This document shows positions 1 through 39,680 of a stretch of DNA of 40,074 nt, one piece after another (the stretch's first letter is position 1; each line of letters begins with the position of its first letter). The translations under genes and the position numbers were made by a program. This stretch comes from a virus: the IMG/VR virus record IMGVR_UViG_3300007512_000087, positions 1-40,074 of that record. One strand, given 5' to 3'. The notes below the pieces were generated by a model that worked only from the letters and a program-made list of their open reading frames with translations, was not told where the DNA came from and did no database searches.

Positions 1-66
1 ATCAACATATTCAGGCATTGGGGTTTTGACCATAGGATGGTCTGGCTGTAAAAGTTTATATATCAT
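1..66 (-). CDS. N-terminus of a possible peptide deformylase (cut by window edge)
   Basis: An open frame starts with ATG at 66-64 and runs off the left edge; 22 codons are visible, beginning MIYKLLQPDHPMVKTPMP. The ATG shares four bases (ATGA) with the gp46 stop, so it is translationally coupled to gp46. Peptide deformylases often begin with a short strand followed by a 'P-D-x-x-L/V-K/R-x' element, and phage-encoded deformylases occur in marine T4-like genomes; the visible residues fit that pattern. The catalytic motifs (GxGLAAxQ, EGCLS, HExDH) would lie outside the window, so the assignment rests only on a short N-terminal resemblance. The presence of a coding start here is much surer than the product. 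Confidence 0.4.
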   Translation of the reverse strand, partial: MIYKLLQPDHPMVKTPMPEYVD

Positions 67-1736
67 GCTTCAATTAATTTGCTAAAGTTATTCTGTTTCT
101 CAAATTTCATAATACTTTGAAACTTGTCAAACAATATATCGCCTTTGTGAGAAATCACAAATATATTTTGACTCTCAAGTTGATTGAGAATCTTCAAAAA
201 ATCATCAGTTCCAGATGCATCAAGGCTGGAATCAAACACCTCATCCATAATGAGTAGATTGGTATTGGTTGAGTTTTTCAACCTTGCAACCTCTCTCCAT
301 GTGAACATCAGAGCCAAGTCTATTCTCATCTTTTCACCTTCTGAGAATGAAGCATACGAAAAGTCATCACGATAACGAGACTTGATTGTTTCTTCAAACT
401 GTTCATTGAGGTGAAAGTTCACATAGAAATCCAGAACACCCAGATACTTTTGAATCGTCTGGTTCATCACAGGAAGATACTGTTTGATGATTTTTGATTT
501 TATCCCTGTATCATGCAACAAATTTTTACAAATGTCAAGGTAAAAATTTTCCTCTTTCAGTTCCTTCGTTCTGAGATCTATCTCTTCTATATTCTCCTTC
601 AAACCTTCTATCTGTTTTTTCTGTTCGTCAGTCTGTTCCTTATCTTTGGTTAATTGATCCAGATAATCTTGGCACTTAGTAGCCATTTTCTCTAATGCAT
701 TGATCTCAGCATTGTTCTGTTGCATTTCAGCTGCAAGACTATTCAGTTCTGAAAGATTGGTAGTCAATCGTTCCAGTTCCGTTTCCATCTCACCCATCGC
801 ATTTTGATACTTCTGAGATTGATCTAGTAACTCTGAGTTTCTGAATTTCTTGAATGACTTCTTAATAGGCTGTTCACATACTGGACAGTCATCATTCTTT
901 ACAAAGAATTCTCTCTGTTTATCCACTTCAGACTTCTTGGTTCCTACTTGTGTCTTGAGTGTTTTCAGTTTACTGGTATCAGTTTCTACAGTTGTCTTGT
1001 GGACTAATGCAGCCTGAATCTCTTGATTTCTATCCTGTCTTTCCTGTTTAGATTCTAAATGGTTATCCCTCTCCTTGGTCAGATCTTCCATCTTTTTCTC
1101 TGCATCATCTTCAACCTTCTTCAGATGAGACTCCTCAACTTCCAAAGTGCTCCTGTATAAAGACTCCTCTAACTTCAGTTCATTGACTTCAGACTGAACC
1201 TCTTTGTATTTAAGCTTCAGTAGAGTGTTCATCAGAGAGAACACCTTGATATCAAGAATATCTTCTACCACCTCTCTACGATGAGTTGAAGATAACTTCA
1301 TGAAAGGAATGAAACAGGAAGACCCTAGAATCACTACTTGAGTAAATGACTTGTAGTTCAACTTGAGTATCTGTTCTTCCAGAACTTTCTGGAAATCCCT
1401 TGAATGAGCCTCTTGATCCATAGGTTCACCATTCCGAATGATCTCAAAGATATTCGGCTTGATTCCTCTACGAACCAAAAACTCATTGGTTCCTATCTGG
1501 AAATCCACCTCAACTTCTGCACCACCAGAATTGATAGAATTTACCAGTTGGTTTTTCTTAATTGGTCTGTATGGTTTTCCAAATAGAACAAAACACAATG
1601 CATCAAGGACAGTGGACTTACCAGCTCCATTCTCTCCTATGATGAGTGTGGTTCTAGATCTATCAAGAATGACCTCTGTAAATTGGTTCCCTGTTGAAAG
1701 AAAATTCTTCCAACGAACCTTTTTAAAGTGTATCAT
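63..1736 (-). CDS. 46: gp46-like recombination nuclease subunit (Rad50/SbcC family ATPase)
   Basis: Large subunit of the T4 gp46/gp47 complex, which resects DNA ends for recombination-dependent replication and degrades host DNA in the cytoplasm. The 557-residue product is about the length of T4 gp46. Visible features are a Walker A motif GENGAGKST at residues 34-42, long heptad-rich coiled-coil arms on either side of a zinc-hook CPVC at residues 284-287, an ABC signature FSEGEKMR near residue 450, and a Walker B/D-loop LLIMDEVFDSSLD near residue 500. Its start overlaps the gp47 stop by ATGA and its own stop overlaps the next start the same way, so the genes form a translationally coupled chain. 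The family assignment is secure. Confidence 0.96.
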   Translation of the reverse strand: MIHFKKVRWKNFLSTGNQFTEVILDRSRTTLIIGENGAGKSTVLDALCFVLFGKPYRPIKKNQLVNSINSGGAEVEVDFQIGTNEFLVRRGIKPNIFEIIRNGEPMDQEAHSRDFQKVLEEQILKLNYKSFTQVVILGSSCFIPFMKLSSTHRREVVEDILDIKVFSLMNTLLKLKYKEVQSEVNELKLEESLYRSTLEVEESHLKKVEDDAEKKMEDLTKERDNHLESKQERQDRNQEIQAALVHKTTVETDTSKLKTLKTQVGTKKSEVDKQREFFVKNDDCPVCEQPIKKSFKKFRNSELLDQSQKYQNAMGEMETELERLTTNLSELNSLAAEMQQNNAEINALEKMATKCQDYLDQLTKDKEQTDEQKKQIEGLKENIEEIDLRTKELKEENFYLDICKNLLHDTGIKSKIIKQYLPVMNQTIQKYLGVLDFYVNFHLNEQFEETIKSRYRDDFSYASFSEGEKMRIDLALMFTWREVARLKNSTNTNLLIMDEVFDSSLDASGTDDFLKILNQLESQNIFVISHKGDILFDKFQSIMKFEKQNNFSKLIEA

Positions 1737-2806
1737 GCTTCTAAATCGGCTGCTTCAATGTATAATGATTTTAATTTGGTCTTGATTCGTTCCTTGTCGA
1801 GAGTTGTCTCTATCTCTTCAACATACCGATCAAGAAGTGAAAGTGTATCCTGAGCTCCATCCACAATGTCATCATGAACAAAATCGGAGCTCAGGTCTGA
1901 AAAATCTTCAACTATCTTTAAATCATGTAAGGAAATCTCCTTATACAGTCGATCCAAAAATTTGTCGTATGCATAATAATCATTTCGATTCTCCACGAAC
2001 ACCTTAACATATTTCTTATCAAATTTGGTTATGTCAAATTCTACATAGTCATGCTTAGTGTCATCATAATATATCTTCTCAAACATGGTATACTCGTTTG
2101 GAATGAACTCTAATTCCCTAGTTTCCAAATCGAAAGTGTGAAACCCTTTTGGATCTCCACAATCTGCCCATGTCATTTCGTAAGGACACCCCAGATAATA
2201 AATCTGGCCATCATTGGATCTCTTATGGTAGTGTCCACTCAGAACCAGTTCAAAGTTCTTGAACAATTCCTTCTCAAATCCATGATCTGAAACCACCCCA
2301 GAGTGCATTTCAAATCCTCTGACTTCCAGATGACCCATACCAACTTGAGCTCCTGACTTGAGAACCTTGGTAGTCTCTGCATAGTTCTCGGCAGTGATCC
2401 AAGGAATGATTGCAATATCCTGTTTCTCAATAGAGATCACTTGAGGTTTATCATACACATACCAACAAGCCTCACTTCCAGGCATGGGTAACTCATTATA
2501 ACAATTTACTGCAAGTGTGTTCTTATAGTAAATGTCATGGTTTCCCACTATAAAATAACAAGGCAACCATGTTCCCATAAGACCACCTATGAACTTCTCA
2601 CGAAAATCCATGGCCGTCTTATAGTTGATAAACTTCCTGCGATCTAGACAATCTCCCAGATGCATGACACCACAAATATCTTCAGAATTTTCCACTATGT
2701 ATGGAAAGAACTGATTTTGATAGAAGTCAAAGAAATAGTCACTAAAAACCTGACTATCGTTCCGAGCCCCGAAATGAGTATCAGTAATGATTACGAGTTT
2801 CTTCAT
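1733..2806 (-). CDS. 47: gp47-like recombination nuclease subunit (Mre11/SbcD family)
   Basis: Nuclease partner of gp46. The 357-residue protein carries the calcineurin-type phosphoesterase motifs in order: DTHFG at residues 9-13, HLGDCLD near 50, GNHD near 90, GHLEV near 155 and SGHYHKR near 190; together these build the two-metal active site of Mre11/SbcD enzymes. Length is slightly above T4 gp47. The start codon overlaps the stop of the upstream 56-codon gene by ATGA, and its stop overlaps the gp46 start by ATGA, so stoichiometric coupled translation with gp46 is expected. No substitution of a key metal ligand is apparent. Alternative identities are unlikely given adjacency to gp46. Confidence 0.96.
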   Translation of the reverse strand: MKKLVIITDTHFGARNDSQVFSDYFFDFYQNQFFPYIVENSEDICGVMHLGDCLDRRKFINYKTAMDFREKFIGGLMGTWLPCYFIVGNHDIYYKNTLAVNCYNELPMPGSEACWYVYDKPQVISIEKQDIAIIPWITAENYAETTKVLKSGAQVGMGHLEVRGFEMHSGVVSDHGFEKELFKNFELVLSGHYHKRSNDGQIYYLGCPYEMTWADCGDPKGFHTFDLETRELEFIPNEYTMFEKIYYDDTKHDYVEFDITKFDKKYVKVFVENRNDYYAYDKFLDRLYKEISLHDLKIVEDFSDLSSDFVHDDIVDGAQDTLSLLDRYVEEIETTLDKERIKTKLKSLYIEAADLEA

Positions 2807-2973
2807 TTTTTAACTAACGCATCAATGAAGTCCTCTAACCAAATTTTACCAGCTCCTGCTTCAGATTCTTCGATTGAGGCTTCAATCTCATGCAGTTCTG
2901 TAGCTGGAATATTTGCAGTGAAATCTGAAATCATTTTCTCGACCTCATCTACATACTTTTCAAATTTTGTCAT
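2803..2973 (-). CDS. Small acidic 56-residue protein between gp55 and gp47, unknown function
   Basis: A 57-codon frame (including stop) begins MTKFEKYVDEVEKM and ends WLEDFIDALVKK. Its ATG at 2973-2971 shares ATGA with the gp55 stop, and its TGA at 2805-2803 shares ATGA with the gp47 start. This double four-base overlap, without any spare DNA, is strong evidence that it is a real gene in the coupled gp55-gp47-gp46 chain. The product is acidic, probably helical, and has no cysteine, signal peptide or membrane segment. I do not recognise the family. Its place suggests a small accessory factor for late transcription or for the recombination nuclease, but that is inference from position only. Confidence 0.8.
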   Translation of the reverse strand: MTKFEKYVDEVEKMISDFTANIPATELHEIEASIEESEAGAGKIWLEDFIDALVKK

Positions 2974-3506
2974 AATTCCTCTTCTATGAAATTTTCAATC
3001 CCTTTTTTACGCCGTTTCTTTTTGGGCATACTTTCTTTTGGAAGATTATCCCTCAAGAAATCAATGTAAGTGTTATCGTATACATCGTCATCATAATCAT
3101 GGACATCATGAGTCTTCAATGTATCGTTATCTATAATTTTCTGCTTAATTGCAGTTTGTTTCTTTTCTTTAGTAATTCGTCTAAGAAATGCATAATAAAT
3201 TATTTGAGTAAAATACGCAAATGGATTTTGTGATTTCTCAGGGTTGAAATTCTTAGCATATTGAATACAATTTTCTATACCATCTCCAATCATCTCCTCT
3301 CGATAAGTGTAATTAATAAAATTTGGTCTATACGATAAATGAGTTGCTATCTTGTAAAAACATTCTCCTATGTACTCAGGTATAGGAGGAATCTGTTCTC
3401 CTTCAGATTCAGCTTCATTTACTTCATCCTTCCAATCTAACATCGCTGCTAGAAATACTTTATTATCCACATAATGTGGTTTTTTAGGTTTTTCACTATT
3501 ACTCAT
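2970..3506 (-). CDS. 55: gp55-like late transcription sigma factor
   Basis: Phage sigma factor that directs host RNA polymerase to TATAAATA-type late promoters, in T4 together with gp33 and the gp45 clamp. The 178-residue length matches T4 gp55 (about 185). The stretch around residues 85-115, with FNPEKSQNPFAYFTQ followed by AFLRRITKEKKQ, is the conserved region-2-like core of this family. The C-terminus is basic then acidic (KKKRRKKG followed by IEEEL), the tail expected to contact the sliding clamp. It begins at an ATG with a good AGGAG ribosome site six bases upstream. The late-promoter motifs elsewhere in the window are its expected targets. It heads the coupled chain to gp47 and gp46. 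Confidence 0.95.
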   Translation of the reverse strand: MSNSEKPKKPHYVDNKVFLAAMLDWKDEVNEAESEGEQIPPIPEYIGECFYKIATHLSYRPNFINYTYREEMIGDGIENCIQYAKNFNPEKSQNPFAYFTQIIYYAFLRRITKEKKQTAIKQKIIDNDTLKTHDVHDYDDDVYDNTYIDFLRDNLPKESMPKKKRRKKGIENFIEEEL

Positions 3507-3534
3507 ATTATACTCCTTTTTTTGAAAATGTCAA
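3507..3534 (-). promoter_or_regulatory. Possible sigma70-like promoter overlapping the gp55 ribosome site
   Basis: Reading the minus strand, TTGACA (3534-3529), 16 bases, then TATAAT (3512-3507) directly abuts the gp55 ATG. Both boxes are perfect matches to the bacterial consensus, and the spacer carries the AGGAG ribosome site. If used, transcription would start inside gp55, so it could not serve gp55 from this ATG; it may be chance or could serve downstream genes. Confidence 0.3.
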
Positions 3535-3562
3535 GTCGTTTATTTTTGTCTTGACTATTGAG

Positions 3563-3594
3563 AAAAAACCATGTATACTTTGTATGTTCAGGTT
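3563..3594 (-). terminator. Weak candidate intrinsic terminator after uvsW
   Basis: On the minus strand just after the uvsW stop, AACC pairs with GGTT around an inner ATAC-AAA-GTAT hairpin, separated by an internal loop, and the 3' arm runs into six T residues. The T tract and position are right for a terminator between uvsW and gp55, but the stem is imperfect. Confidence 0.3.
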
Positions 3595-3598
3595 CAAG

Positions 3599-5047
3599 TT
3601 ACATCTCTACCTTATGGATTTCATAGTCGAACTCCTCTTGGTTGTAGATGCTGATCCTCTCTGCAAAGTGTTTAATGGTGTGATTCCGACCATCGAAATC
3701 ATCAGCTATATCATACAATTTTGCATTCACCTTACTGTCATGCAACCTTAATCCCCTACCTATTGATTGTAGATTTCTGATGCGAGACTTATAAGGACTA
3801 GCGAAAATAATGTTATGAAGATTCCTAATATTGATGCCAGTACTAAATACACCAAAGCTGGCGACAATAATCCTTCCATTTGTTTGTTCTGTAAGTTTTC
3901 TGATTCCTTCTCTTGTTTCGGTATCTGTGGCTCCGTAAACCAAGTGAACATCATTTGTTTTCTCCTTTATTAGCTTATATAATAACTCTCCATGTTTTAT
4001 TAACGAAAAAAGGACGAGCGTGTTACCTTTCTGATCTACGCTTAAATTACGAATCAAATTATTTCTCTTTGGATGCTGGGTTATATACTTAATTTCATCT
4101 TGATATTTCCTTATTATACACTCTTCTTTTGAATAAGTCAAGACAATTCCTGTCACTTTTATATCAGAAAGTTGTTTCTTATCAATGAGTTGACGAGTTG
4201 TAGTAACCTGTTTTACAGGCCCAAACAACCCCTCAAGTACTAACCTATGACTCTGTGTATCGTTTAGAGTCCCTGTTAAACCATATTTAAACTCCGTACT
4301 TATTGTTTTAGACATGATCTTCTTGAGAGAATCAGCCTTAAATGTATGGGCCTCATCCCCAAAGATCACTCTGAATTTTTTAAAATAACTCTGAGGTTCT
4401 TTATATAATGACTGCCATGTTGATATGTAAACTATTTTCCCCTCAGCTTGTTTCTCTCTACCTGAGTATATTCTATGACAATAATAATCTGAGTTCCATC
4501 CATACTCTTTAAAATCAGAGAACATCTGTTCCACTAGTGAGGTAGTAGGAACCAATAATAACATACAGTCTTTGCCTGGGTCATGCAAAAATTTCTGATA
4601 ATATCGAATCAGTATATAAATTATAAGGGATTTGCCCGATGCAGTAGGACTAACAAGGAGGCTGCGGCCAGTTCTGATACTATGATGAACTGCATCCATT
4701 TGGTAATCCCTAATTTCATACGGAATCCCCAATCTTGAAATAAACGACTCAACATTTTCTTTGTGAATTGAAAGGGGCGACCAATTTCCCCCTGTTAATG
4801 AATATGATCTTTTTTCTGCAAATTCTCTGATATAGTTATATAACCCACTGTAAATTTGGTTAGTCCTAGTATCAAATAGTCTTATCTTACCATCCCAAAA
4901 CCTGTTCTTGTATGCAGGCATAAACTTAGCTTCTGGGATATCAAAACTGAAAAATTCATTCAGTTCCCTCGCAATACTTCTTTCACACTCCACTTGAAGA
5001 TAGACTTCATTCTTCTTATGTAATGTGATATCAGATTCCAGCCTCAA
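3599..5047 (-). CDS. uvsW: UvsW-like ATP-dependent DNA/RNA helicase
   Basis: Superfamily 2 helicase that unwinds R-loops and branched recombination intermediates and switches T4 from origin- to recombination-dependent replication. The 482-residue protein has Walker A SPTASGKS near residues 133-140, a DEAH box at 231-234, motif III-like GLTGTL near residue 260, and a C-terminal RecA-like domain with motif VI QSIGRGLRLH. The first ~110 residues match the small N-terminal substrate-binding domain seen in UvsW, and length is close to T4 UvsW (about 500). It overlaps the end of uvsY by 17 bases, so the two recombination genes are read as one unit. The assignment is secure. Confidence 0.95.
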   Translation of the reverse strand: MRLESDITLHKKNEVYLQVECERSIARELNEFFSFDIPEAKFMPAYKNRFWDGKIRLFDTRTNQIYSGLYNYIREFAEKRSYSLTGGNWSPLSIHKENVESFISRLGIPYEIRDYQMDAVHHSIRTGRSLLVSPTASGKSLIIYILIRYYQKFLHDPGKDCMLLLVPTTSLVEQMFSDFKEYGWNSDYYCHRIYSGREKQAEGKIVYISTWQSLYKEPQSYFKKFRVIFGDEAHTFKADSLKKIMSKTISTEFKYGLTGTLNDTQSHRLVLEGLFGPVKQVTTTRQLIDKKQLSDIKVTGIVLTYSKEECIIRKYQDEIKYITQHPKRNNLIRNLSVDQKGNTLVLFSLIKHGELLYKLIKEKTNDVHLVYGATDTETREGIRKLTEQTNGRIIVASFGVFSTGINIRNLHNIIFASPYKSRIRNLQSIGRGLRLHDSKVNAKLYDIADDFDGRNHTIKHFAERISIYNQEEFDYEIHKVEM

Positions 5048-5462
5048 ACTTTCTCCACTCTATCGCATTTTTGATCTGAAAGGATCGGTTTGAAATGGAC
5101 TTAACAACTTCTTGAAGATATTCTACTACAGTCTCATAGTATTCAACCTTTCCCTTGAGTTCTCTGACTTCTTCATCAGCCTCAATAAAGGTTCGTTCTT
5201 CGTCTTTGGTTTTTAATTTTAATGGAAAATCTCCCTTCTCCTTATAGACTTCTTCTGGAGCCTTACCTGTATAGTAGATCCATTTGTTCCTTTTGAGAAC
5301 TGCAAAATCACCTTGAGTTTTTTTGAGAAGTAGAGAATGCTCCGTAAGAAGCTGTAGATATTTTGAATGGAGTGAAGGGATTCGTAGGGACTCAATATCT
5401 AACTCCATATCGTTGATCTTGAGATCCTTTTTTACTTTATCTTGTATTTCAGTTAGTGTCAT
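5031..5462 (-). CDS. uvsY: UvsY-like recombination mediator protein
   Basis: Loads the UvsX recombinase onto single-stranded DNA coated by the phage SSB. The 143-residue protein matches T4 UvsY in length (137) and pattern: an N-terminal helix with KYLQLLTEHSLLLKK, a central KWIYYTGKAPEEVYKEK motif, and a C-terminal coiled-coil region ending IKNAIEWRKFEAG, which is characteristic of the family. It lies immediately upstream of uvsW with a 17-base overlap. No Shine-Dalgarno sequence is visible before its ATG, and its leader contains an 11-bp inverted repeat and a CATAAATA late-type motif about 100 bases upstream, so translation may depend on leader structure. Identification is firm. Confidence 0.94.
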   Translation of the reverse strand: MTLTEIQDKVKKDLKINDMELDIESLRIPSLHSKYLQLLTEHSLLLKKTQGDFAVLKRNKWIYYTGKAPEEVYKEKGDFPLKLKTKDEERTFIEADEEVRELKGKVEYYETVVEYLQEVVKSISNRSFQIKNAIEWRKFEAGI

Positions 5463-30246: not shown

Positions 30247-30453
30247 TTAGGCGAATGCTATCCAGAACTCTTCACGTTCCTTTTTTGCTAGTTCACTTTG
30301 GTATCTAATGAACCAGAATGCGGCAATGATTACACAGGCAGGTATGCCCAGGTCCATCACCATTTGATATAAGTCAGGCATAGCCTCCGTTGTGTTGATT
30401 GTTGTAGGGTAGTTATAATATTGATCCGCTGGATTAGGATGATGTCCACTCAT
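30247..30453 (-). CDS. Small single-pass membrane protein (holin-like or YvrJ-like)
   Basis: A 68-residue protein starting MSGHHPNPADQYYNYPTTIN. Residues ~31-48 (MVMDLGIPACVIIAAFWF) form one hydrophobic segment, followed by a charged helix IRYQSELAKKEREEFW. The 'GIP-hydrophobic-x-x-R/K-charged' layout recalls the short YvrJ-type phage membrane proteins, which are sometimes proposed as holins. It lies alone between the giant LamG gene and the late promoter hairpin, with AAGGATT before the ATG. A role in lysis or in inner-membrane association during DNA entry is possible; the sequence alone does not decide. Confidence 0.7.
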   Translation of the reverse strand: MSGHHPNPADQYYNYPTTINTTEAMPDLYQMVMDLGIPACVIIAAFWFIRYQSELAKKEREEFWIAFA

Positions 30454-30495: not shown

Positions 30496-33400
30496 TCATG
30501 CAAAGGCCATGTAGATGTAGGTGTCACCACTAGTATTCATTGCCACAGTTGAAGTACCAGAATCAAGTGTGAATCCAGTTGCAGTAAATCTAATTCCATA
30601 AGAAGAGTAAGATTGCTCATAATCAGTAATGTTTGCAAAAAGAGGGGTTGTAATTTCATCTTCCACATCTCTGAATGAGTCAAATACACACCAATGTCCG
30701 ACAGAATCAATATTTTTAATCATTACACATTTAGGTAGAAATCCCATATCGCTAACAGTCACATCCGAAGCCGTTCCTTCGTAAGTCCCAAACGCACTCA
30801 CGCCTGACACGGCTTTAAATGCGTAGCAGACATAACTTTGACCACTTTCTAATACCACACCACCATAATTCAAATTTATTTTATCTGATGTAATTCCGTA
30901 GCCAGATCCTGCCCACGGATCAATAGAGGTGTTAGCAGATCCTCCATAATATCCTTTTTGAGTGTTGGCATTTAATTGAATATAATCTGATGCGTTTGTG
31001 CTTGAACCACTATTTAAACCTGAGTGCCAGACTATCCAATGGTATGTAGCTGATGTGCATTTTATTATTACCCAATCTGGTGTTCCAGATAGTCCGTGTT
31101 TAAACCAACCATCAGTCGAACCATTTGCTGTGTATGTTGTAATAGAAAAATTACCACTTGTATTAACACTTTGACGTATTGCGCTAAAATCACTTGCGCT
31201 ATAATCAGTCCCAGATGTTAAATTTGATTCCGTTCCATCAACTATCTTTTTCCCATTACCACTAGGCGCACCTCCAGCCTTCCATGCCCATGCTATATGC
31301 GCTTTTTCGTTTTCATTAAAATACGAATGACCGTTTTTTATAATAAACCCATCACTCCTAAACTCTGCATCTAAGTCAGTACCATCGTAAGCTGCCGTAT
31401 TAGCTTGTGATTGCAACCAGTTATTATCCCCACGGACAGAATCCATTAGTAGGTGGTTCCTAGCAACGTCCCTGTTCTTAAACCACAGGAGGTCTGGCTG
31501 ATATCCAAAACCTAAAATTTCTTGATTTGTTACACTATTGTTACTGGCAGAAATACCAACATACCTCCGTGCGTTGAACAAAGTAGGATTTCCAGATTCT
31601 AACTTAGTTATCTGAAGTGCCCCTACTCCAGAACTCTCATTAATCTCTGAAATTCTAGCAGCATCTCCATTTGCTTGCATTCTAATACGAACATTAGTTG
31701 CAGTTCCAGCTGTACCTGTCATGGTTCCAGTAATGGTTGCAGTATTTGCTCCTGCTCCACCATCTGCTAAGTTTCCACTCAATCCGGCAGGAAGGGAACT
31801 TCCTTGTTCTGAGAATGCAATCTCTGGAGTGAATGTAAGAGTCTGAGAACCAGCGGCAGAACCAGTTGTATTTTGACTGAGAACTAAAACTCCATCATCA
31901 GCAGAACTTTCAGTTGTAATACTTGCAACTGTAGTTGTTCCACTTCCAGAAATACCTGTTCCTGTTACTTTATCACCAACTCTAATATTAGAAGTTGTTA
32001 TATCTGTAACAGCTGTGGAAGTATTAGCAAGAGTCCCTGTAGTTGAAGTTGTAGAGGGAGTTGCTGTCAGAGTAATGGTTCCTACACTTGGAGTTTCTGA
32101 GCCATAGGCTCCGTAGATTTTGGTGGGTTGGTCATAGTTACCCCATTCAGAAGTAGATGTTCCTGTGTATCGGATAGAATCTGAAACTCTTATTCCTTCT
32201 AAATAGCCTTTGAAAGATCCTACGTTTGTGTCACTTCCACTTTCTCCACCTCCAAAGCATAAATCATGTCCTGATTCATTTATTAACCGACCTGTCCAAA
32301 GGGAACCTGTAGCTGCATCTGGAGCAACATATTTCCCATTTACATAAACTTTTGCAACACCACCAGAACTTCCTGTATGTGTGAAGGCAAAGTGATGCCA
32401 TTGATTATTTGGGAAAGTTGTTTGAAAATCTGCAACTGTATAAACAGAATAGGGTGATGTCGCATAAGCATAGGACTTGGCATCTAATAACCACCCTTTC
32501 AAAGTACCAGAGGCGTTTATTTCAAAGAGAAAATTCTTTCCAATTTGACCATGATCAAACCTTTCTGACCTGAATAAAGACATCCGAGATCCAGATCCAG
32601 TACAATAAAACCAAAATTCAACAGTTGTATTTTTTGCATTTGTATGCATACAAGCTGGAGATGGTGATACATTTATACGATCCCCATCATGTGAAGTGTC
32701 TCCATCAAAATAAGCCCCAGCACTTCCAGTTGCCTTCTGGCTTGCGGGCCAAGTCATCGCAGGGGCGATTCCTCCGTGGCCTTGTGAGTGGTATGAGCCT
32801 GTTGGGGTTATGGTGTGGTCAGAGGTAGCACTATCGTCAAACTTTGTACCATCTCCATTTACTAAAAGTTTAACATTGGATGATGTAGTGTTTGCCACTA
32901 CTACACCTGAAGTAATTTCGCTTGCAGTGTATCCTGCTGGGCTACTAGCTGACCAAGTTTTTGTTGATAAAACTGACTGAGTTGGTTTCGTAAAATTAGC
33001 TGTGTAGACTAACATCGATGTTAATCTAAAATTCTGAATGTATCCGTCAAACCAGCGACTATCTAATGAGTCACCACCAATCTGGAATACTCCTGCTTCT
33101 GCATCAACGGGCGTGGAGGCATTAATTGTCTGTGTGCTTCCTACTTGTGAACCATCAATGTAAAATTTAACTTCAGCACCATTTCTAGTCACTGCGAAAT
33201 GATACCAAGTGCCAGTAGATGGGGTACTCCAATTTACAGAAACAGATCCCGTGTCATCATCATGATATCGGAGTTTGTAAGTTCCACTATCATTCATAAG
33301 GTCAACTAAATTAAGATTGTTTCCACCAGTTCCTCCAATTCTATAAAAAGGATGAAACCTCCCACTACCAGATGTAGTAGGAAGATTAATAAAGTGGATG

Positions 33401-35214
33401 TATGCCTCTACTGTGAATGCTCCAGTTCCTAAATTAAATGCATTTGAATATTGAGGAAAAGATATGCGGTCAGAAGCCCCGTCAAACCTCCAAGCACTAT
33501 AATCCCCTATCATTTTAGGAATAGCATTATCATAAAGAGTTACTGGATGATTAAAATCTGAGCTATCAGCAACCTGATTACTATGAATCAGCAACTTTGT
33601 ATTCGTAATTGCTGTTAGTCGGCTGGTTGGGACATCGAAATCGCCTGTGTAAACGGCAGTGCCTACGACGATCCTAAACTCATCCATGTAACCATGAAAA
33701 GGCCACCCTCCCGATGAGTTTGCTCCGATATAAATAGGATTACCACTATAGTCTACACTAGAAGAATAATCAGTCTTAGAAGACTTATATATCCCATCAA
33801 AATAAAATTTTAATGTTGTTCCTTGTCTAACTATAGCATAGTGATGCCATCCACTGTCATTATAGTTGACAGTGCTATCAAAGTAAGTTGGAGTCGCTAC
33901 TCTAATTGTGGTGCTGGTTTCTTGGTGACAAAATAAGACATTATCACCCCCTATTGTAAAAAATCTGTCATTATTTCCTTGTGTGTGTACATAAGCCCAC
34001 CATTCAATCGTGAAATCACTTGTACTAAAATTCCAATCTGAAGAAGCCGGAATAGTTAATCTATCATCACTTCCATCAAAAAAGATCGCTGACTTCCCAT
34101 CCCCAAAAGGTGATGCCTTGATGGTTGCGTTACCGCTTGCCGTTATTTTGTGACCATCGCCACCCACGTTGCTGGAATCCTCAATGTCCGTTCCACCAGT
34201 GCGGTCAAAATTCAGCAGTAGTTTTGTATTAGAATCCTGACCTCCACCAGCAACTTGACCAGATCCATAAGAACCTAAAGTTGTATCAGAAGGTGCAACT
34301 GTAACCACTCCACCCGATTGTGTAATTGCAAATTCTGAAGTAATATTTGGGTCAGTTGTAAACTTTTTTCCAGAACTTAATATGTTTGAACCAAGTCCTG
34401 CCTTAGTAACTTTTACATAGATGGTTTCATTATTTCCAAAGGTATCATAATTTGACTCATTACCAAACCATTGTGCTTCACAAGAAGTTCCACTAGCAGA
34501 ATTAATTCTAGATGCAGTTGTAACTTTAGTTCCATCTGACCTTTGTATCACCACAGTCAAATCAGCAGTATTAATTCCAATATTAATTCCTGTGATTGTA
34601 AGAGTACCACCCATTATCTCAGCTACTGTTTTAGAAATAACTAACGGAGATCCAGCAGCACCAGCTGCAGTTGAATTTGTTGAAAGTGTAAGAGCGGTTC
34701 CAGAGATATTTGCTACAGTAGTTCCATTTGCAATTCCAACCCCTGTAACAGTTGCACCAACTACTACATCAGTACCAGAACTTAAAGTTACTGATGTACT
34801 ATTATCATTCCATGTTCCTGTAGGGGTAAGAGGTGCTTCGTATGCGTTTAAGTTTCCAGAAATACCAGTAATTTTTGGAGCAGTCAGAGATTCTGCCCAG
34901 CCAGCTACACCTGTAGTTCCATTGATTTGAAGAACGTACTTATCGTTTGTTCCTCTTGAAGTTGGAAGAGTCCATGAACCTCCAGAACCACTACCAGTTC
35001 CTAATGTAACTGCACCTGTTAATTGAGATGTACCTGTATGAGTAGAGGCCCCAGCTACAGTTAATGTGCCTGAACCAGTTGTTGCGATATTACCCGATGT
35101 ACTAATAGAAACATCATTTGCTAGTTCAGCAGTTCCTATTGCATCAGCGGCTATGTCTTCTGCCTTTAAGGTATCTGTTGCAACTCCTGCTCCTGTTACT
35201 TTTGAAAATGCCAT
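30496..35214 (-). CDS. Giant LamG-domain tail fibre/adhesin, paralogue 1 (1572 residues)
   Basis: N-terminus MAFSKVTGAGVATDTLKAED is a fibre anchor. Three LamG/concanavalin-type modules follow: near residues 323-540 (starting NTKLLLNFDRTGGTDIEDSS, with WWAYVHTQGNNDRFFTIGG), near 540-770 (NTKLLIHSN, then FTVEAYIHFINLPTT) and near 780-1030 (NVKLLVNGDGTKFDDSA, then TTVEFWFYCTGSG). Each carries the 'FDGxxD', 'W.H.A..R.G....Y.DG' and 'GY.D.FRI' landmarks of glycan-binding sandwich folds. The C-terminal ~350 residues (YVGISASNNS onward, with GFGYQPDLLWFKNRD and AHIAWAWKAGGAPSG) are shared with the downstream paralogue and end TYIYMAFA. Identical DNA islands link the two genes. A TATAAATA promoter lies 24 bases before the ATG. 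Confidence 0.88.
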   Translation of the reverse strand: MAFSKVTGAGVATDTLKAEDIAADAIGTAELANDVSISTSGNIATTGSGTLTVAGASTHTGTSQLTGAVTLGTGSGSGGSWTLPTSRGTNDKYVLQINGTTGVAGWAESLTAPKITGISGNLNAYEAPLTPTGTWNDNSTSVTLSSGTDVVVGATVTGVGIANGTTVANISGTALTLSTNSTAAGAAGSPLVISKTVAEIMGGTLTITGINIGINTADLTVVIQRSDGTKVTTASRINSASGTSCEAQWFGNESNYDTFGNNETIYVKVTKAGLGSNILSSGKKFTTDPNITSEFAITQSGGVVTVAPSDTTLGSYGSGQVAGGGQDSNTKLLLNFDRTGGTDIEDSSNVGGDGHKITASGNATIKASPFGDGKSAIFFDGSDDRLTIPASSDWNFSTSDFTIEWWAYVHTQGNNDRFFTIGGDNVLFCHQETSTTIRVATPTYFDSTVNYNDSGWHHYAIVRQGTTLKFYFDGIYKSSKTDYSSSVDYSGNPIYIGANSSGGWPFHGYMDEFRIVVGTAVYTGDFDVPTSRLTAITNTKLLIHSNQVADSSDFNHPVTLYDNAIPKMIGDYSAWRFDGASDRISFPQYSNAFNLGTGAFTVEAYIHFINLPTTSGSGRFHPFYRIGGTGGNNLNLVDLMNDSGTYKLRYHDDDTGSVSVNWSTPSTGTWYHFAVTRNGAEVKFYIDGSQVGSTQTINASTPVDAEAGVFQIGGDSLDSRWFDGYIQNFRLTSMLVYTANFTKPTQSVLSTKTWSASSPAGYTASEITSGVVVANTTSSNVKLLVNGDGTKFDDSATSDHTITPTGSYHSQGHGGIAPAMTWPASQKATGSAGAYFDGDTSHDGDRINVSPSPACMHTNAKNTTVEFWFYCTGSGSRMSLFRSERFDHGQIGKNFLFEINASGTLKGWLLDAKSYAYATSPYSVYTVADFQTTFPNNQWHHFAFTHTGSSGGVAKVYVNGKYVAPDAATGSLWTGRLINESGHDLCFGGGESGSDTNVGSFKGYLEGIRVSDSIRYTGTSTSEWGNYDQPTKIYGAYGSETPSVGTITLTATPSTTSTTGTLANTSTAVTDITTSNIRVGDKVTGTGISGSGTTTVASITTESSADDGVLVLSQNTTGSAAGSQTLTFTPEIAFSEQGSSLPAGLSGNLADGGAGANTATITGTMTGTAGTATNVRIRMQANGDAARISEINESSGVGALQITKLESGNPTLFNARRYVGISASNNSVTNQEILGFGYQPDLLWFKNRDVARNHLLMDSVRGDNNWLQSQANTAAYDGTDLDAEFRSDGFIIKNGHSYFNENEKAHIAWAWKAGGAPSGNGKKIVDGTESNLTSGTDYSASDFSAIRQSVNTSGNFSITTYTANGSTDGWFKHGLSGTPDWVIIKCTSATYHWIVWHSGLNSGSSTNASDYIQLNANTQKGYYGGSANTSIDPWAGSGYGITSDKINLNYGGVVLESGQSYVCYAFKAVSGVSAFGTYEGTASDVTVSDMGFLPKCVMIKNIDSVGHWCVFDSFRDVEDEITTPLFANITDYEQSYSSYGIRFTATGFTLDSGTSTVAMNTSGDTYIYMAFA
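32734..32778 (-). repeat. 45-bp GC-rich island identical to 37679-37723 (paralogue 1)
   Basis: Forty-five identical bases, 29 of them G or C, in AT-rich surroundings. They encode GGIAPAMTWPASQK just before a 'GSAGxYFDG' LamG landmark, in the third module here and the second in the partner gene, so the island has changed module position. Confidence 0.88.
34172..34245 (-). repeat. 74-bp island identical to 38457-38530 (copy in paralogue 1)
   Basis: These 74 bases are identical to 38457-38530 and encode the start of the first LamG module (NTKLLLNFDRTGGTDIEDSS). The flanks diverge quickly, so the identity looks like recent exchange or strong conservation of a recombination seam. Confidence 0.9.
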
Positions 35215-35238
35215 TGATTTCTCTGAATGTGTTTCTTA

Positions 35239-35246
35239 TATTTATA
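35239..35246 (-). promoter_or_regulatory. Late promoter TATAAATA between the two LamG fibre genes
   Basis: A perfect minus-strand TATAAATA in the 37-base gap after the stop of paralogue 2 and about 24 bases before the ATG of paralogue 1. It allows paralogue 1 to be transcribed on its own. No hairpin over the ribosome site is seen here. Confidence 0.75.
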
Positions 35247-35251
35247 GTTTG

Positions 35252-38200
35252 TTATGCAAAGGCCATGTAGATGTAAGTACCACCTGAAGCATTTGTTTCC
35301 GTGTTTGAGGAATACAACTCGAATCCTTTATTACCCCCAGAAACGTATGTTCTTACACTTGAGTGTGTTCCAGAGCTTTCTGCCCCACTTAAATCTGCAT
35401 AAAGTGTTCGATGATCTGCATCATTGTAATGAACTCCGCTTGTTGTTGTAGTTCCAGCAAATAACGTATTAGTCATCATCATCCAACTTGCATCTCCATT
35501 TGTTTTTTTAATCATCAGAAAAGAAGGGACAAAACCTATAGACTTATTGTTTCCTGCACTTCCAGTTCCACTATAACTCCCAAATGCACTCACGCCTGAC
35601 ACGGCTTTAAATGCGTAGCAGATAAATGCACCAGCAAATCCTCCAGAACCATCGGCAGAGCCTGTCGTTATTACAGTTGAAGGTGCAGTTGAAAAAACAC
35701 CACTATTAGCTGTTAAGTCATCATTGGTATTAAGAAATAAACTGTTTCCAGTAAGTGTGCCTTGATTTTGATGCCAAGCATACCATCCATCCGTTGTTCC
35801 GCTATTTACTAGGGATTTTATGACAAGAAAAGCTGGAGTATCCCCAAGATTATGAGGGAATGCACAACCAGAATCATGACCAGTAAATTTTGTGATACTA
35901 AACCCAGAATCACGATTGACGGACTGGGTAACATTAGTGGCATTAGAAATAAGTGAATATCCACTATCTGAGGATGAACTAATTGTTCCTGCACCAGATG
36001 TCGTAGTAGAATCAATAGTTCCTAATGTCCCACTAGGCGCACCTCCAGCTTTCCATGCCCATGCTATTTGAGCCTTAGTGTCATAATTAACCCCATTGTT
36101 GTTACCAACAGTAAAACCATCAGAGTCAAATGACTTTAAGCCTTCAGTGATCTGGGTGTTTCCTTGGGTATCATCAGAACGGATTCTGTATGTAGCCCCA
36201 CGGACAGAATCGAATAGTGCATGAGTGTCTACTGTATCTCTGTTTTTAAACCAAACCAAGTCAGGTTGAAAACCAAATCCGTTAATATCTCTTTCTGCAC
36301 CTGTCCCAACATACCTCCGTGCGCTAAACAGCGTTGGCTGAGTATCAGAATCTATTGCAATGGTGAGCATCGGATCAGAAGTACCCATCACTATTGCATC
36401 ACTCGCAGTGGAAGTGGGATTACCATTTACAATAGCTACTCTCTCAGGATCACCGAAGTAAATTGTTCCACTTACAGTACCACTATGAACTTTTGTAACT
36501 GTAATTTGAGTCGCACTATCTATTGACTTAATAACATTAGTAAATGTTAAACTCTGGCTACTTAATGAGCCGTCAGTTGTACTAGCAGAAAGTGTTATTT
36601 GTGTTCCTGAGTCTATTGTTGAAACTGTTGTTCCATTAGGTATTCCTTTACCAAAAACAACCATTCCAACAGCAATATCGCTAGTAACTGAAGAACCAAA
36701 TGTTACTGTAGTGCCATTGTTATAACTTGCACCAGTTAAAGTGACTTCTGTAACAGCATTAGTAGCACTTCCAGTTAATATGTAATACCCAGGCTGTAAT
36801 CCTTCGGTATTTATCCCACTACCAAATGTGATTGTGGCTTGTCCGCTAGTTCCTGAAGCACTCCCTCTCTCTGTTCGGACCTGTGCTTTTACTGGTAGGT
36901 TTGCTCTTGTAGTACCACTAAAATTATCACTAATTGTTCCTGTTAGTTCAGCTTTGTTTTTGTTTCCTCCTGTTAGGTTTGTCAGAGTCAACCCAATCTT
37001 TGAGTCATCGAGCTTCTGCATTCCACTTGTGATTGAGGTATTTGCTACATTACTAAACTCAATGTCCTCATCGGATGCCAAGGAACCTGATGCTAGTTGC
37101 CCTGTGAAGGTGATGGTTGGGATTGTTTTGGATTTATAGGCTCCGTAGATTTGGGTGGGTACTGGATAAGTGTATGTTCCAGAGTTATTAACATGACGAG
37201 CAATATTTGAAACACGAAAACCATCTATATAACCATTGAAATAGTGGCCACTAGCACTATATATAGAATACCCTATATGCAGATTATCGCCTGTTCCAGA
37301 TGTGTCTGAAGTATTAAGGGTATGCGTTGAAGAACCAACTTCTGTTCCATCAACAAACATTCTTACAGTAGTTCCATCATAAGTAGATGCAACGTGTTTC
37401 CAATTATTTAAAAATGAAGACTGAGTAGCCGTGGTGTTAAAATCAGCTGATCCATGTCCCTGAAAACGTAAATACCCTCCGTGTAATATTGATGCACCAA
37501 AATGTTTCGCAGGAGTATCTTCCCCATAACTCCAAAGATATTGATAATCACCACTAGAGGATTGAGTTTGATATACGAACGCCTCAATACTTCTAGCACC
37601 AGCACCCGATGGGCCTACTGCTGCATCAAGATCAAGATTATCGTTACCATCAAAATAAACCCCAGCACTTCCAGTCTTCTTCTGGCTTGCGGGCCAAGTC
37701 ATCGCAGGGGCGATTCCTCCGTGTAGCTTTGAATGGATTGCACCTGTTCTAGTTATAGTATGAGCAGTATTATTAGCAGGAGAATCAGAAGAACTATCCG
37801 TAAATGTAGTATTGCCTTCGTCTGTTCGGTTACTATGAATCAGCAATTTGGTATTCGTAATTGCTGTTAGTCGGCTGGTTGGGACAGTGAAATCTGAGGT
37901 GTAAACGGCAGTGCCTTTGACGATTCGGATTTCGTCTAGGTATCCATCAAGATAAGAGCCATTATAATCTCCAGCTTTACCGATTGTTGGGTTGACTGTA
38001 GCTGTAGCCATTGATAACCCTGTCACACTTCCAGTTGCGACTGATACCCCATCCACATAATTTGTTATGGTATTCCCATTCCTTACAGAGGCAACGTGAT
38101 ACCAAGTATTTGTACTGAAAACGGCATCAGATAATACCTGAACATTACTCCCACTTGATGGCACAAATACAAATTTTAATTTTTGGGATGATGTCATTCC

Positions 38201-39115
38201 AAATGAAAATGTTTGGTATGAGCCTGAAGAATTGTGATCTGCAAAAATTTCATTATCGGAACTAAAACTTGAAGCATACACCCAACATTCAAATGTAAAA
38301 TCACCAGAGCCAAAGGCAAAGTCATCTGAGTCTGTGATTGTTAATTTATCATCCGTCCCATCAAAGAACATCGCAGACTTCCCATCCCTAAAAGGGCTTG
38401 CTTTTATGACTGCATTTCCGCTTGCCGTTATTTTGTGACCATCGCCACCAGTGTTACTGGAATCCTCAATGTCCGTTCCACCAGTGCGGTCAAAATTCAG
38501 CAGTAGTTTTGTATTAGAATCCTGACCTCCTCCAGCAACTCTGCCGCCATAAGTACCAAAGTGGTTCGTTGTATTTGCACCTGAACCTGTTCCTTGGGTG
38601 AAGGTAACTGTAGGATCTGCGGATACTACGAATGCCGTGGCAAATCTTGTGGTGATTCCAGAATTTGATGCTTCTGCATAAAGTGTTGCACCTACGTTTA
38701 AATCACCATGACCAAAGGTTGCTTCTAGTTTGGTTGTTGTCTGATTGGTAATGGTCGCATCTGATCCAACTTTATTACCTGATGTACTTGCATCCCAAAG
38801 AGAAACAGTAGTATTAGGAGAAAAATCAGCACCAAAGAGCGTTAAGGTTGAGTCCTGATCATGATTGAGAGAACCCGATATATCATTAATGGTTGGTGCT
38901 GTTGCAGTGACATTCCATCCTGTAGTCCCATTGGTTTTATCTGTCATGGCAAGAACATAGTTGTTCTCAGCAGCTCTTACAATTGGAAGTTTGTAAGAAT
39001 TACTTCCAGAACCTACAGTAATTTGACCAGTGGAATCTGCAATTGTGGCCGCAGTTGTTCCGTCATCTGCTTTAAGGGTTGGTCCTTGTAATGTTGTTAT
39101 TCTACGAACTGCCAT
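35252..39115 (-). CDS. Giant LamG-domain tail fibre/adhesin, paralogue 2 (1287 residues)
   Basis: Starts MAVRRITTLQGPTLKADDGT, then an IPT/TIG-like Ig module near residues 75-165 (PTINDISGSLNHDQDSTLTL, FGADFSPNTTVSLWD). Two LamG-type modules follow, near 195-415 (NTKLLLNFDRTGGTDIEDSS; DFTFECWVYASSFSSDNEIF; WYHVASVRNGNTITNYVDGV) and near 425-650 (NTKLLIHSNRTDEGN; ARSIEAFVYQTQSSSG; NGYIDGFRVSNIARH). The region 660-930 is repetitive beta sequence with a second Ig-like part. The C-terminal domain from ~936 (RRYVGTGAERDINGFGFQPD, then AQIAWAWKAGGAP) is homologous to the end of paralogue 1 and also ends TYIYMAFA. It is probably a receptor-binding fibre; no depolymerase motif is evident. Confidence 0.88.
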   Translation of the reverse strand: MAVRRITTLQGPTLKADDGTTAATIADSTGQITVGSGSNSYKLPIVRAAENNYVLAMTDKTNGTTGWNVTATAPTINDISGSLNHDQDSTLTLFGADFSPNTTVSLWDASTSGNKVGSDATITNQTTTKLEATFGHGDLNVGATLYAEASNSGITTRFATAFVVSADPTVTFTQGTGSGANTTNHFGTYGGRVAGGGQDSNTKLLLNFDRTGGTDIEDSSNTGGDGHKITASGNAVIKASPFRDGKSAMFFDGTDDKLTITDSDDFAFGSGDFTFECWVYASSFSSDNEIFADHNSSGSYQTFSFGMTSSQKLKFVFVPSSGSNVQVLSDAVFSTNTWYHVASVRNGNTITNYVDGVSVATGSVTGLSMATATVNPTIGKAGDYNGSYLDGYLDEIRIVKGTAVYTSDFTVPTSRLTAITNTKLLIHSNRTDEGNTTFTDSSSDSPANNTAHTITRTGAIHSKLHGGIAPAMTWPASQKKTGSAGVYFDGNDNLDLDAAVGPSGAGARSIEAFVYQTQSSSGDYQYLWSYGEDTPAKHFGASILHGGYLRFQGHGSADFNTTATQSSFLNNWKHVASTYDGTTVRMFVDGTEVGSSTHTLNTSDTSGTGDNLHIGYSIYSASGHYFNGYIDGFRVSNIARHVNNSGTYTYPVPTQIYGAYKSKTIPTITFTGQLASGSLASDEDIEFSNVANTSITSGMQKLDDSKIGLTLTNLTGGNKNKAELTGTISDNFSGTTRANLPVKAQVRTERGSASGTSGQATITFGSGINTEGLQPGYYILTGSATNAVTEVTLTGASYNNGTTVTFGSSVTSDIAVGMVVFGKGIPNGTTVSTIDSGTQITLSASTTDGSLSSQSLTFTNVIKSIDSATQITVTKVHSGTVSGTIYFGDPERVAIVNGNPTSTASDAIVMGTSDPMLTIAIDSDTQPTLFSARRYVGTGAERDINGFGFQPDLVWFKNRDTVDTHALFDSVRGATYRIRSDDTQGNTQITEGLKSFDSDGFTVGNNNGVNYDTKAQIAWAWKAGGAPSGTLGTIDSTTTSGAGTISSSSDSGYSLISNATNVTQSVNRDSGFSITKFTGHDSGCAFPHNLGDTPAFLVIKSLVNSGTTDGWYAWHQNQGTLTGNSLFLNTNDDLTANSGVFSTAPSTVITTGSADGSGGFAGAFICYAFKAVSGVSAFGSYSGTGSAGNNKSIGFVPSFLMIKKTNGDASWMMMTNTLFAGTTTTSGVHYNDADHRTLYADLSGAESSGTHSSVRTYVSGGNKGFELYSSNTETNASGGTYIYMAFA
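37679..37723 (-). repeat. 45-bp GC-rich island identical to 32734-32778 (paralogue 2)
   Basis: Partner of the 45-bp island in paralogue 1; direct orientation, about 4.9 kb apart. Base composition stands out from the AT-rich flanks. Confidence 0.88.
38457..38530 (-). repeat. 74-bp island identical to 34172-34245 (copy in paralogue 2)
   Basis: Partner of the 74-bp island in paralogue 1, at the same place at the start of the first LamG module. Distance between copies is about 4.3 kb in direct orientation. Confidence 0.9.
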
Positions 39116-39124
39116 TGTTTCCTA

Positions 39125-39679
39125 TTATGATGGTTGTGTTGGCCAAGTTATCTCTGAATATTTAGTTTTTGCTGACTGTTCAGCTGGCAAATCTCTGAGA
39201 GCGACTCTGTATGTCTTCCATTTAGCTGCAACTGTTCCTCCGTTCTCTCTTGCCTTGATGACTACCCAATCGGTATCTGCAAGGAGTCTAGTTCTTTCTC
39301 TTCTGATTTTTTTCCATTCTTCTGCGAGGTCATAGGCAGCCTTAGCGGTATCATCTTTGACTATTTTGGTTCCGTCCCACTTGAGGTGGTAGTGTGTGCC
39401 GTCTATCTCTGAATGTATGTGACCACTCTCGTTAAAAGTAACTGTAATGTCGTTACCCTCTTCATCTTTGTCCTGATAACTCAGGGGAGCATCAGTTTCT
39501 ACGATCTCGTAGTCCTCCCCCGAAAAGTCATAGCTTTTATGTCCGTTTTCGTCTTCAGTAGTAACAGTAGCTAGCCAAGTCCAGTAAGCGGATTTGTCTA
39601 AGCCTTTAGTCTTTCTCCTGCATTGCCACTCTGTTTCGTGAACTTGCTGGATTACATTTGATTTATGTGATATGAACAT
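39125..39679 (-). CDS. Tail fibre assembly chaperone-like protein
   Basis: A 184-residue protein starting MFISHKSNVIQQVHETEWQC. The C-terminal 75 residues match the phage tail assembly chaperone pattern: EEWKKIRRERTRLLADTDWV, then AAKWKTYRVALRDLP and a terminal ITWPTQPS, that is 'R-x-E-R-x-x-L-L-x-x-x-D-W', 'W-x-x-Y-R-x-A-L-R-D-L-P' and 'W-P-x-x-P'. Such proteins are encoded next to fibres and assist their folding or attachment, or form a fibre-end module. The N-terminal ~100 residues are polar and may bind the fibre (YDFSGEDYEIVETDAPLSYQ; SGHIHSEIDGTHYHLKWDGT). It follows the edge gene by one base and precedes paralogue 2 by nine bases, so it probably serves the LamG fibres. Confidence 0.8.
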   Translation of the reverse strand: MFISHKSNVIQQVHETEWQCRRKTKGLDKSAYWTWLATVTTEDENGHKSYDFSGEDYEIVETDAPLSYQDKDEEGNDITVTFNESGHIHSEIDGTHYHLKWDGTKIVKDDTAKAAYDLAEEWKKIRRERTRLLADTDWVVIKARENGGTVAAKWKTYRVALRDLPAEQSAKTKYSEITWPTQPS

Positions 39680-39680
39680 T

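What the first reader, a model, noticed from the sequence alone, without database searches (positions are those of the whole stretch)
30496..39115. Tandem giant LamG fibres share identical GC-rich DNA islands
Seen: direct identical blocks of 74 bp (34172-34245 and 38457-38530), 45 bp (32734-32778 and 37679-37723), 37 bp (30794-30830 and 35586-35622) and 36 bp (33599-33634 and 37851-37886) lie in otherwise diverged genes. The 45-bp block is 29/45 G+C in AT-rich DNA and sits before the third module in one gene and the second in the other. Inference: the islands are seams for recombination or gene conversion that shuffle receptor-binding modules.
Basis: partly seen in the sequence, partly recalled or inferred. 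Interest (0 to 1): 0.66.

Follow-up and report, generated by a model that had tools for sequence, protein, structure and literature searches.

The report
Phage lectin fibres swap at seams
Two giant sugar-binding fibre genes of a marine T4-like virus are built like a train whose carriages (lectin modules) differ from virus to virus while the couplings between them stay alike at the DNA level even in viruses of unrelated kinds, which points to repeated carriage-by-carriage exchange of putative host-recognition parts across virus families.

Summary
All four identical blocks are real, and far longer than chance (74 nt against 11-14 nt in shuffled genes). They are cores of at least seven conserved stretches (S1-S7) in two tandem fibre genes, A (LamG x3 + DUF7483) and B (LamG x2 + DUF7483), of a T4-like, pelagimyophage-like virus. 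The same stretches recur in 18 other uncultured phage contigs whose other genes are unrelated; several carry podovirus-type portal or internal-virion proteins. Between them the modules are mostly unalignable, yet particular modules are shared at 77-90% DNA identity seam to seam (gene A's LamG2 with G014: 87% over 977 nt). Ends of long shared segments fall in seams 53 times of 102 (shuffled mean 16.6, maximum 32). Module sets are mosaic. Synonymous codons agree more in seams (0.67) than in equally conserved module columns (0.53). B and one other phage lack exactly the S2-S3 cassette. The seam interpretation holds, but exchange is mainly between phages; A and B are each other's nearest relative only at S1. 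Precedents exist (T-even adhesin motifs; DNA motifs around coliphage receptor-binding domains). New here are serial intragenic seams crossing phage types. Recombination is inferred, not observed; receptor binding is untested.

The parts
30496..35214 (-). Gene A, 1572 aa: N-terminal part, three LamG modules, linker X, DUF7483
35252..39115 (-). Gene B, 1287 aa: same plan with two LamG modules, DUF7483; the S2-S3 cassette is missing
34052..34255 (-). Seam S1 in gene A (contains the 74-nt block 34172-34245): N-terminal strands of LamG 1
38337..38540 (-). Seam S1 in gene B (contains the 74-nt block 38457-38530)
33578..33698 (-). Seam S2 in gene A (36-nt block 33599-33634): last strand of LamG 1, linker, first strand of LamG 2
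37830..37950 (-). Seam S2 in gene B (36-nt block 37851-37886)
32702..32822 (-). Seam S3 in gene A (45-nt block 32734-32778, peptide HGGIAPAMTWPASQK)
37647..37767 (-). Seam S3 in gene B (45-nt block 37679-37723)
32072..32131 (-). Seam S4 in gene A (PTKIYGAY motif after LamG 3)
37109..37168 (-). Seam S4 in gene B (PTQIYGAY)
31259..31319 (-). Seam S5 in gene A (AWAWKAGGAPSG, inside DUF7483)
36030..36090 (-). Seam S5 in gene B
30773..30830 (-). Seam S6 in gene A (37-nt block 30794-30830, CYAFKAVSGVSA)
35565..35622 (-). Seam S6 in gene B (37-nt block 35586-35622)
30498..30544 (-). Seam S7 in gene A: gene end, TYIYMAFA-stop
35254..35300 (-). Seam S7 in gene B: gene end, TYIYMAFA-stop
32823..33577 (-). 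LamG 2 cassette of gene A; shared with phage G014 (L021/L030) seam to seam at 87% (32702-33672)
37768..37829 (-). 62 nt left between S2 and S3 in gene B, where the others carry a LamG 2 cassette of about 600-870 nt
36857..37160 (-). Segment after S4 in gene B, 88% identical to phages G001 and G005 while the LamG before it is unlike
30247..30453 (-). 68-aa ORF after gene A: first 66 residues match (95%) a 107-aa protein that follows the fibre in G010 (relatives in 11 further contigs), then ends IAFA-stop like the fibres; probable exchange scar
63..5462 (-). T4-type recombination and late genes: SbcC-like (gp46), SbcD-like (gp47), late sigma, UvsW-like helicase, UvsY

Best explanation
The fibres are serial cassettes. 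Conserved stretches at the edges of each LamG jellyroll (last strand, linker, first strand of the next) and within and at the end of the DUF7483 region serve as short homologies at which co-infecting phages recombine, so that single lectin modules, or strings of them, are replaced, gained or lost while the protein frame is kept. Because crossovers keep falling in these stretches, the seams pass from phage to phage and stay alike at silent sites, while the modules between them are old and unalignable. Shown: seam conservation, seam-bounded module sharing, mosaic module sets, absence of the S2-S3 cassette in two genes. Inferred: homologous recombination (by T4-type UvsY/gp46/gp47 or relaxed phage annealing proteins) as the agent, and change of host recognition as the benefit. 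Between genes A and B themselves a recent conversion, or a shared donor, is needed only at S1.
For: Seam DNA mostly 70-92% identical between phages whose flanking modules are unlike. Module sharing seam to seam: A-G014 S2-S3 87%; G010-G012, G012-G015 and G010-G015 S2-S3 88-90%; G010-G016 S1-S2 77%; G010-G012 S5-S6 84%; G015-N083 S4-S5 85%, with step-like edges at the seams. Internal ends of long shared segments in seams: 53/102 against 16.6 +/- 4.6, none of 2000 circular shifts reaching it. Barcodes do not fit one tree, e.g. G010 shares LamG1 with G016, LamG2 with G012/G015 and D with G012; most module-to-module Mantel correlations are near 0. Outside the fibres and their immediate flank the window has no close gene in common with these contigs, and the pairs compared by blastn have almost no other DNA match. 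Seams exceed modules in silent-site agreement and in GC3 in 20 of 20 fibres; DUF7483 motifs GFQPDLVWFKNRD and DSVRG, conserved as protein, show only 0.40-0.44. Cassette absent in B and N083. A truncated neighbour gene 95% identical to that of podovirus-like G010 follows gene A. UvsY, UvsW, gp46/47 are present.
Against: No recombinant was seen within one population; the one second assembly of this phage (L003, L094) keeps the gene order as far as it reaches. Within seams, linkage between halves is weak (r 0.30 in S1, 0.29 in S2, about 0 in S3, S4, S6), which very frequent exchange or site-by-site constraint would both give. Seam limits used were set by DNA matches, which inflates their rates; the protein-projected test is smaller. 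For the exact 74- and 36-nt block peptides, silent-site agreement among other phages is only 0.52-0.55, no better than other conserved columns (0.57-0.58).
Confidence: 0.77

Rival explanations
1. DNA- or RNA-level constraint: the seam codons are held by selection (slow codons at domain borders for co-translational folding, mRNA structure), and the likeness between phages is not due to exchange.
For: GC3 is raised in seams in all 20 fibres regardless of genome GC; linkage inside seams is weak; the sites lie at domain borders.
Against: It does not explain whole modules shared seam to seam at 77-90% between otherwise unrelated phages, the mosaic barcodes, or the truncated hitchhiking gene. Many seam codons vary between phages rather than being fixed.
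Confidence: 0.12
2. Recent gene conversion between genes A and B inside this genome made the identical blocks (concerted evolution of a tandem duplicate).
For: At S1 A and B are each other's nearest relatives, 89% over 204 nt with a 74-nt exact block, although the same peptide has same-codon agreement of only 0.52 among other phages. The second strain L003 has at 38456 the base of gene A, lengthening the match.
Against: At S2, S3, S4 and S6 each gene is as close or closer to other phages than to its neighbour (S2: A-G010 90%, B-G014 92%, A-B 83%). The seams recur in phages with one fibre gene.
Confidence: 0.08
3. A dedicated site-specific system (serine or tyrosine recombinase, invertase) or a diversity-generating retroelement acts on the islands.
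For: Short identical blocks flank variable domains.
Against: No RVT_1, resolvase or phage integrase match in the window, the 52-kb second contig, G010 or G014; the four islands share no motif beyond chance; no inverted repeats bracket the modules. The records are fragments, so an enzyme encoded elsewhere is not excluded.
Confidence: 0.02

Closest known systems
[quoted passage not shown] title read in the reference lists of PMC3797505 and PMC10408124)
   Same: Conserved motifs separate variable receptor-binding segments, and recombination between motifs reshuffles them.
   Different: There, per PMC9229481, glycine-rich motifs and hypervariable segments in the adhesin at the fibre tip; here LamG jellyroll modules in two giant DUF7483 fibres, with seams shared with phages of other families.
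Conserved DNA motifs of 44, 95 and 20 nt around the receptor-binding domain in six lytic coliphage genera (PMC10408124)
   Same: DNA motifs conserved across genera at the borders of an exchangeable receptor-binding domain, proposed as recombination hotspots.
   Different: [quoted passage not shown] here at least seven seams lie in series inside one gene so that single modules move, and conservation was tested at silent sites. The motif identities there averaged 63-81%.
Host recognition cluster of pelagimyophages (PMC7029224) and metaviromic islands of marine phages (PMC3909814)
   Same: Same kind of phage and locus: hypervariable tail-fibre region, concanavalin A-type and collagen domains; tail fibre and lectin genes under-recruit in viromes.
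   Different: Those papers describe the variability; a search of their text for 'recombination' found no mention, and no seams are described in the passages read.

Membership tests
Concanavalin A-like / LamG lectin domain proteins | Match to Laminin_G_3 (PF13385) and the LamG fold | tested here: met
   E 4.5e-45 (A, 3 stretches) and 1.4e-38 (B, 2 stretches); a modest-confidence model (pLDDT 63.5) matches laminin LG pairs at E 5e-13
DUF7483 phage fibre C-terminus (PF24299) | Profile match at the C-terminus | tested here: met
   E 2e-56 and 1.3e-59; PHROG hits annotated tail fibre or virion structural
T4-like myoviruses of the pelagimyophage type | T4-type sheath, portal, major head protein, UvsY, late sigma | tested here: met
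   sheath 57% identical to Pelagibacter phage Mosig over its full length
Seam-mediated receptor-binding module exchange (Tetart-type or PMC10408124-type) | Conserved DNA flanks variable binding modules in different phages | tested here: met
Seam-mediated receptor-binding module exchange (Tetart-type or PMC10408124-type) | Recombinants with breakpoints in the conserved motifs | tested here: met
   Inferred from natural mosaics; not from a cross
Seam-mediated receptor-binding module exchange (Tetart-type or PMC10408124-type) | Exchange changes the receptor or host | not testable with these tools
   Hosts of all contigs unknown; needs binding assays
Diversity-generating retroelement | Reverse transcriptase with template and variable repeats | tested here: not met
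   No RVT_1 in the window, the second contig, G010 or G014; records are fragments
Invertible tail-fibre cassette | DNA invertase and inverted repeats around alternative ends | tested here: not met
   repeats are direct

The most novel reading that the evidence does not exclude
A common exchange standard: unrelated marine phages (T4-like and podovirus-like) keep the same serial DNA seams because carrying them gives access to a shared pool of lectin modules, so that silent-site likeness at the seams is kept up by exchange itself across family borders, and each LamG slot evolves as its own gene pool.
Probability: 0.3. Interest if true: 0.8.

Novelty: new variant of a known kind. Interest (0 to 1): 0.6.

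Why it matters
It gives sequence-level anatomy for how putative host-recognition proteins of uncultured marine phages could be reassembled module by module, and across phage types rather than within a lineage. Seams can be used as baits to collect modules from metagenomes and to measure exchange rates. It also warns that fibre genes cannot be treated as one evolutionary unit in host prediction.

Tried and rejected
Named phages: no useful DNA match to the fibres (one 54-nt piece in a fosmid phage; none for G012 and G013 fibres), so all relatives are uncultured contigs. Genome contigs: no relative. Kin of a virus record cannot be drawn. A degenerate pattern for CYAFKAVSGVS found only this phage and at first suggested a private sequence; the cause is that most relatives have W for F, so that idea was dropped. 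The first silent-site estimates with DNA-defined seams were judged biased upwards and redone with protein-projected limits. Site-specific recombinase, invertase and retroelement were tested and disfavoured. Linkage inside seams was tested to separate exchange from constraint and did not decide.

Full report
WHAT WAS CLAIMED AND CHECKED. The four block pairs are exact at the stated coordinates; shuffled genes share at most 11-14 nt. They are cores of longer repeats between the two genes, 79-90% identical over 47-204 nt, and three more exact blocks of 20-32 nt exist. Aligned by codon, A and B share 473 of 1152 aligned residues; among identical degenerate residues 266 of 458 use the same codon, while the blocks are 100%.

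THE GENES. Gene A (1572 aa) and gene B (1287 aa) carry three and two Laminin_G_3 stretches and a C-terminal DUF7483, with PHROG hits annotated as tail fibre or virion structural proteins. The window has T4-type sheath, portal, major head protein, late sigma factor, UvsW-like helicase, UvsY, SbcC- and SbcD-like proteins. Its sheath is 57% identical to that of Pelagibacter phage Mosig and about as close to methylophage Melnitz and HTVC008M, so it is pelagimyophage-like; the host is not known.

RELATIVES. Pattern and protein scans of IMG/VR gave 18 other contigs with the same fibre plan (G006 was too distant to use) plus two further contigs of this same phage (L003, L094). The window's non-fibre proteins have no close relative in the contigs compared (only weak terminase, collagen-repeat and fibre-linker hits). 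Several contigs carry podovirus-type markers: head-tail adaptor or portal in G002, G011 and G016, internal virion proteins in G010, G013 and G015. G014 has a weak tail-sheath hit and may be another myovirus.

SEAMS. In these contigs the stretches around the blocks are alike as DNA (mostly 70-92%) while the modules between are mostly unalignable. Seven seams were recognised: S1 before LamG 1, S2 between LamG 1 and 2, S3 before LamG 3, S4 after it, S5 and S6 in DUF7483, S7 at the gene end. A model of S1-S3 (pLDDT 63.5, modest) shows two jellyrolls, with S2 covering the last strand of one, the linker and the first strand of the next; its best PDB matches are laminin LG pairs (whole-model TM about 0.24, so the match concerns domains, not their arrangement).

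SILENT SITES. The clean test used only pairs of other phages, seam limits taken from the A-B repeats and projected by protein alignment, and only pairs whose flanking modules are unlike. Same-codon agreement at identical residues is 0.64 in seams and 0.46 in modules; in columns of equal local protein conservation 0.67 and 0.53, bootstrap difference 0.145 (0.106-0.181). Shared codon usage predicts 0.42-0.46; non-fibre genes of these contigs give 0.41. Protein-conserved DUF7483 motifs outside the seams give 0.40-0.44. GC3 is higher in seams than modules in all 20 fibres. Limits: the 74- and 36-nt block peptides by themselves give only 0.52-0.55 in other phages, so the A-B identity at S1 needs a recent A-B exchange or common donor on top of pool-wide conservation.

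EXCHANGE. Long shared DNA segments run seam to seam, with steps at seams in 30-nt profiles. Of 102 internal ends of segments of 300 nt or more, 53 lie in seams; 2000 circular shifts gave a mean of 16.6 and a maximum of 32. Part of this is built in, since a match next to a conserved seam will be extended through it, and pairs are not independent. Module alleles are mosaic; most module pairs are uncorrelated, exceptions being N with X (0.72) and N with LamG 3 (0.44). LamG 3 has no shared allele among 19. B and N083 lack the S2-S3 cassette (62 and about 120 nt remain), while G015, 85% identical to N083 up to S2, has it.

A AGAINST B. At S2, S3, S4 and S6 each gene's nearest relative by silent sites is another phage; only at S1 are A and B mutual nearest (at S3 A is B's second nearest). 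So the likeness between the tandem genes is mainly a sample of a seam pool shared among phages.

A PROBABLE SCAR. After gene A lies a 68-aa ORF whose first 66 residues are 95% identical to a 107-aa membrane-type protein after the fibre of podovirus-like G010; relatives lie in 11 other contigs, mostly downstream of the fibre. In the window it breaks off and ends IAFA-stop, as the fibres do (YIYxAFA-stop). In G010 it is followed by another small protein and an M15 endolysin. Inference: gene A's end arrived with part of a podophage lysis region.

MECHANISM. Shown: seams, seam-bounded sharing, mosaicism. Inferred: homologous recombination during co-infection. Not shown: any recombinant in a population, receptor binding, or change of host. 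The constraint rival is not excluded for part of the silent-site signal.

KNOWN OR NEW. The principle is known for T-even adhesins (Tetart 1998, cited in PMC3797505) and coliphage tailspikes (PMC10408124). The serial intragenic arrangement, module by module, between T4-like and podovirus-like marine phages was not found in the papers searched, a library limited to open-licence papers.

Noticed in passing
30247-30453 (-): 68-aa ORF: truncated copy of a roughly 105-aa membrane-type protein found near the fibre in 12 other contigs, ending in IAFA-stop like the fibres; looks like a recombination scar. The only other contig with the scar is a second assembly of the same phage.
   Followed up: partly
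30450 and 34233: In metagenome 3300008952 the same phage is assembled as two contigs (L094, L003) that stop at 30450 (just after gene A) and at 34233 (inside the 74-nt block), leaving out gene A from S1 to its end: perhaps a repeat break, perhaps several versions of gene A in that sample.
   Followed up: partly
36861-36928 and 39638-39680: The second strain L003 differs from the window at 20 sites in 5.4 kb, 16 of them in these two short clusters, the first in the S4-S5 module where it is closer to G001 and G005: small exchange tracts.
   Followed up: partly
28308-29852 (-): 514-aa protein with collagen repeats and a CBM_5_12 match next to the fibres.
   Followed up: no
32132-32701 and 37169-37646: LamG 3 is the most variable slot: no shared allele among 19 fibres.
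   Followed up: no
21271-22833 (-): Baseplate-type protein (T4 gp9/10 N-terminus) shares a domain of about 100 aa with the N-terminal parts of four of the other phages' fibres.
   Followed up: no
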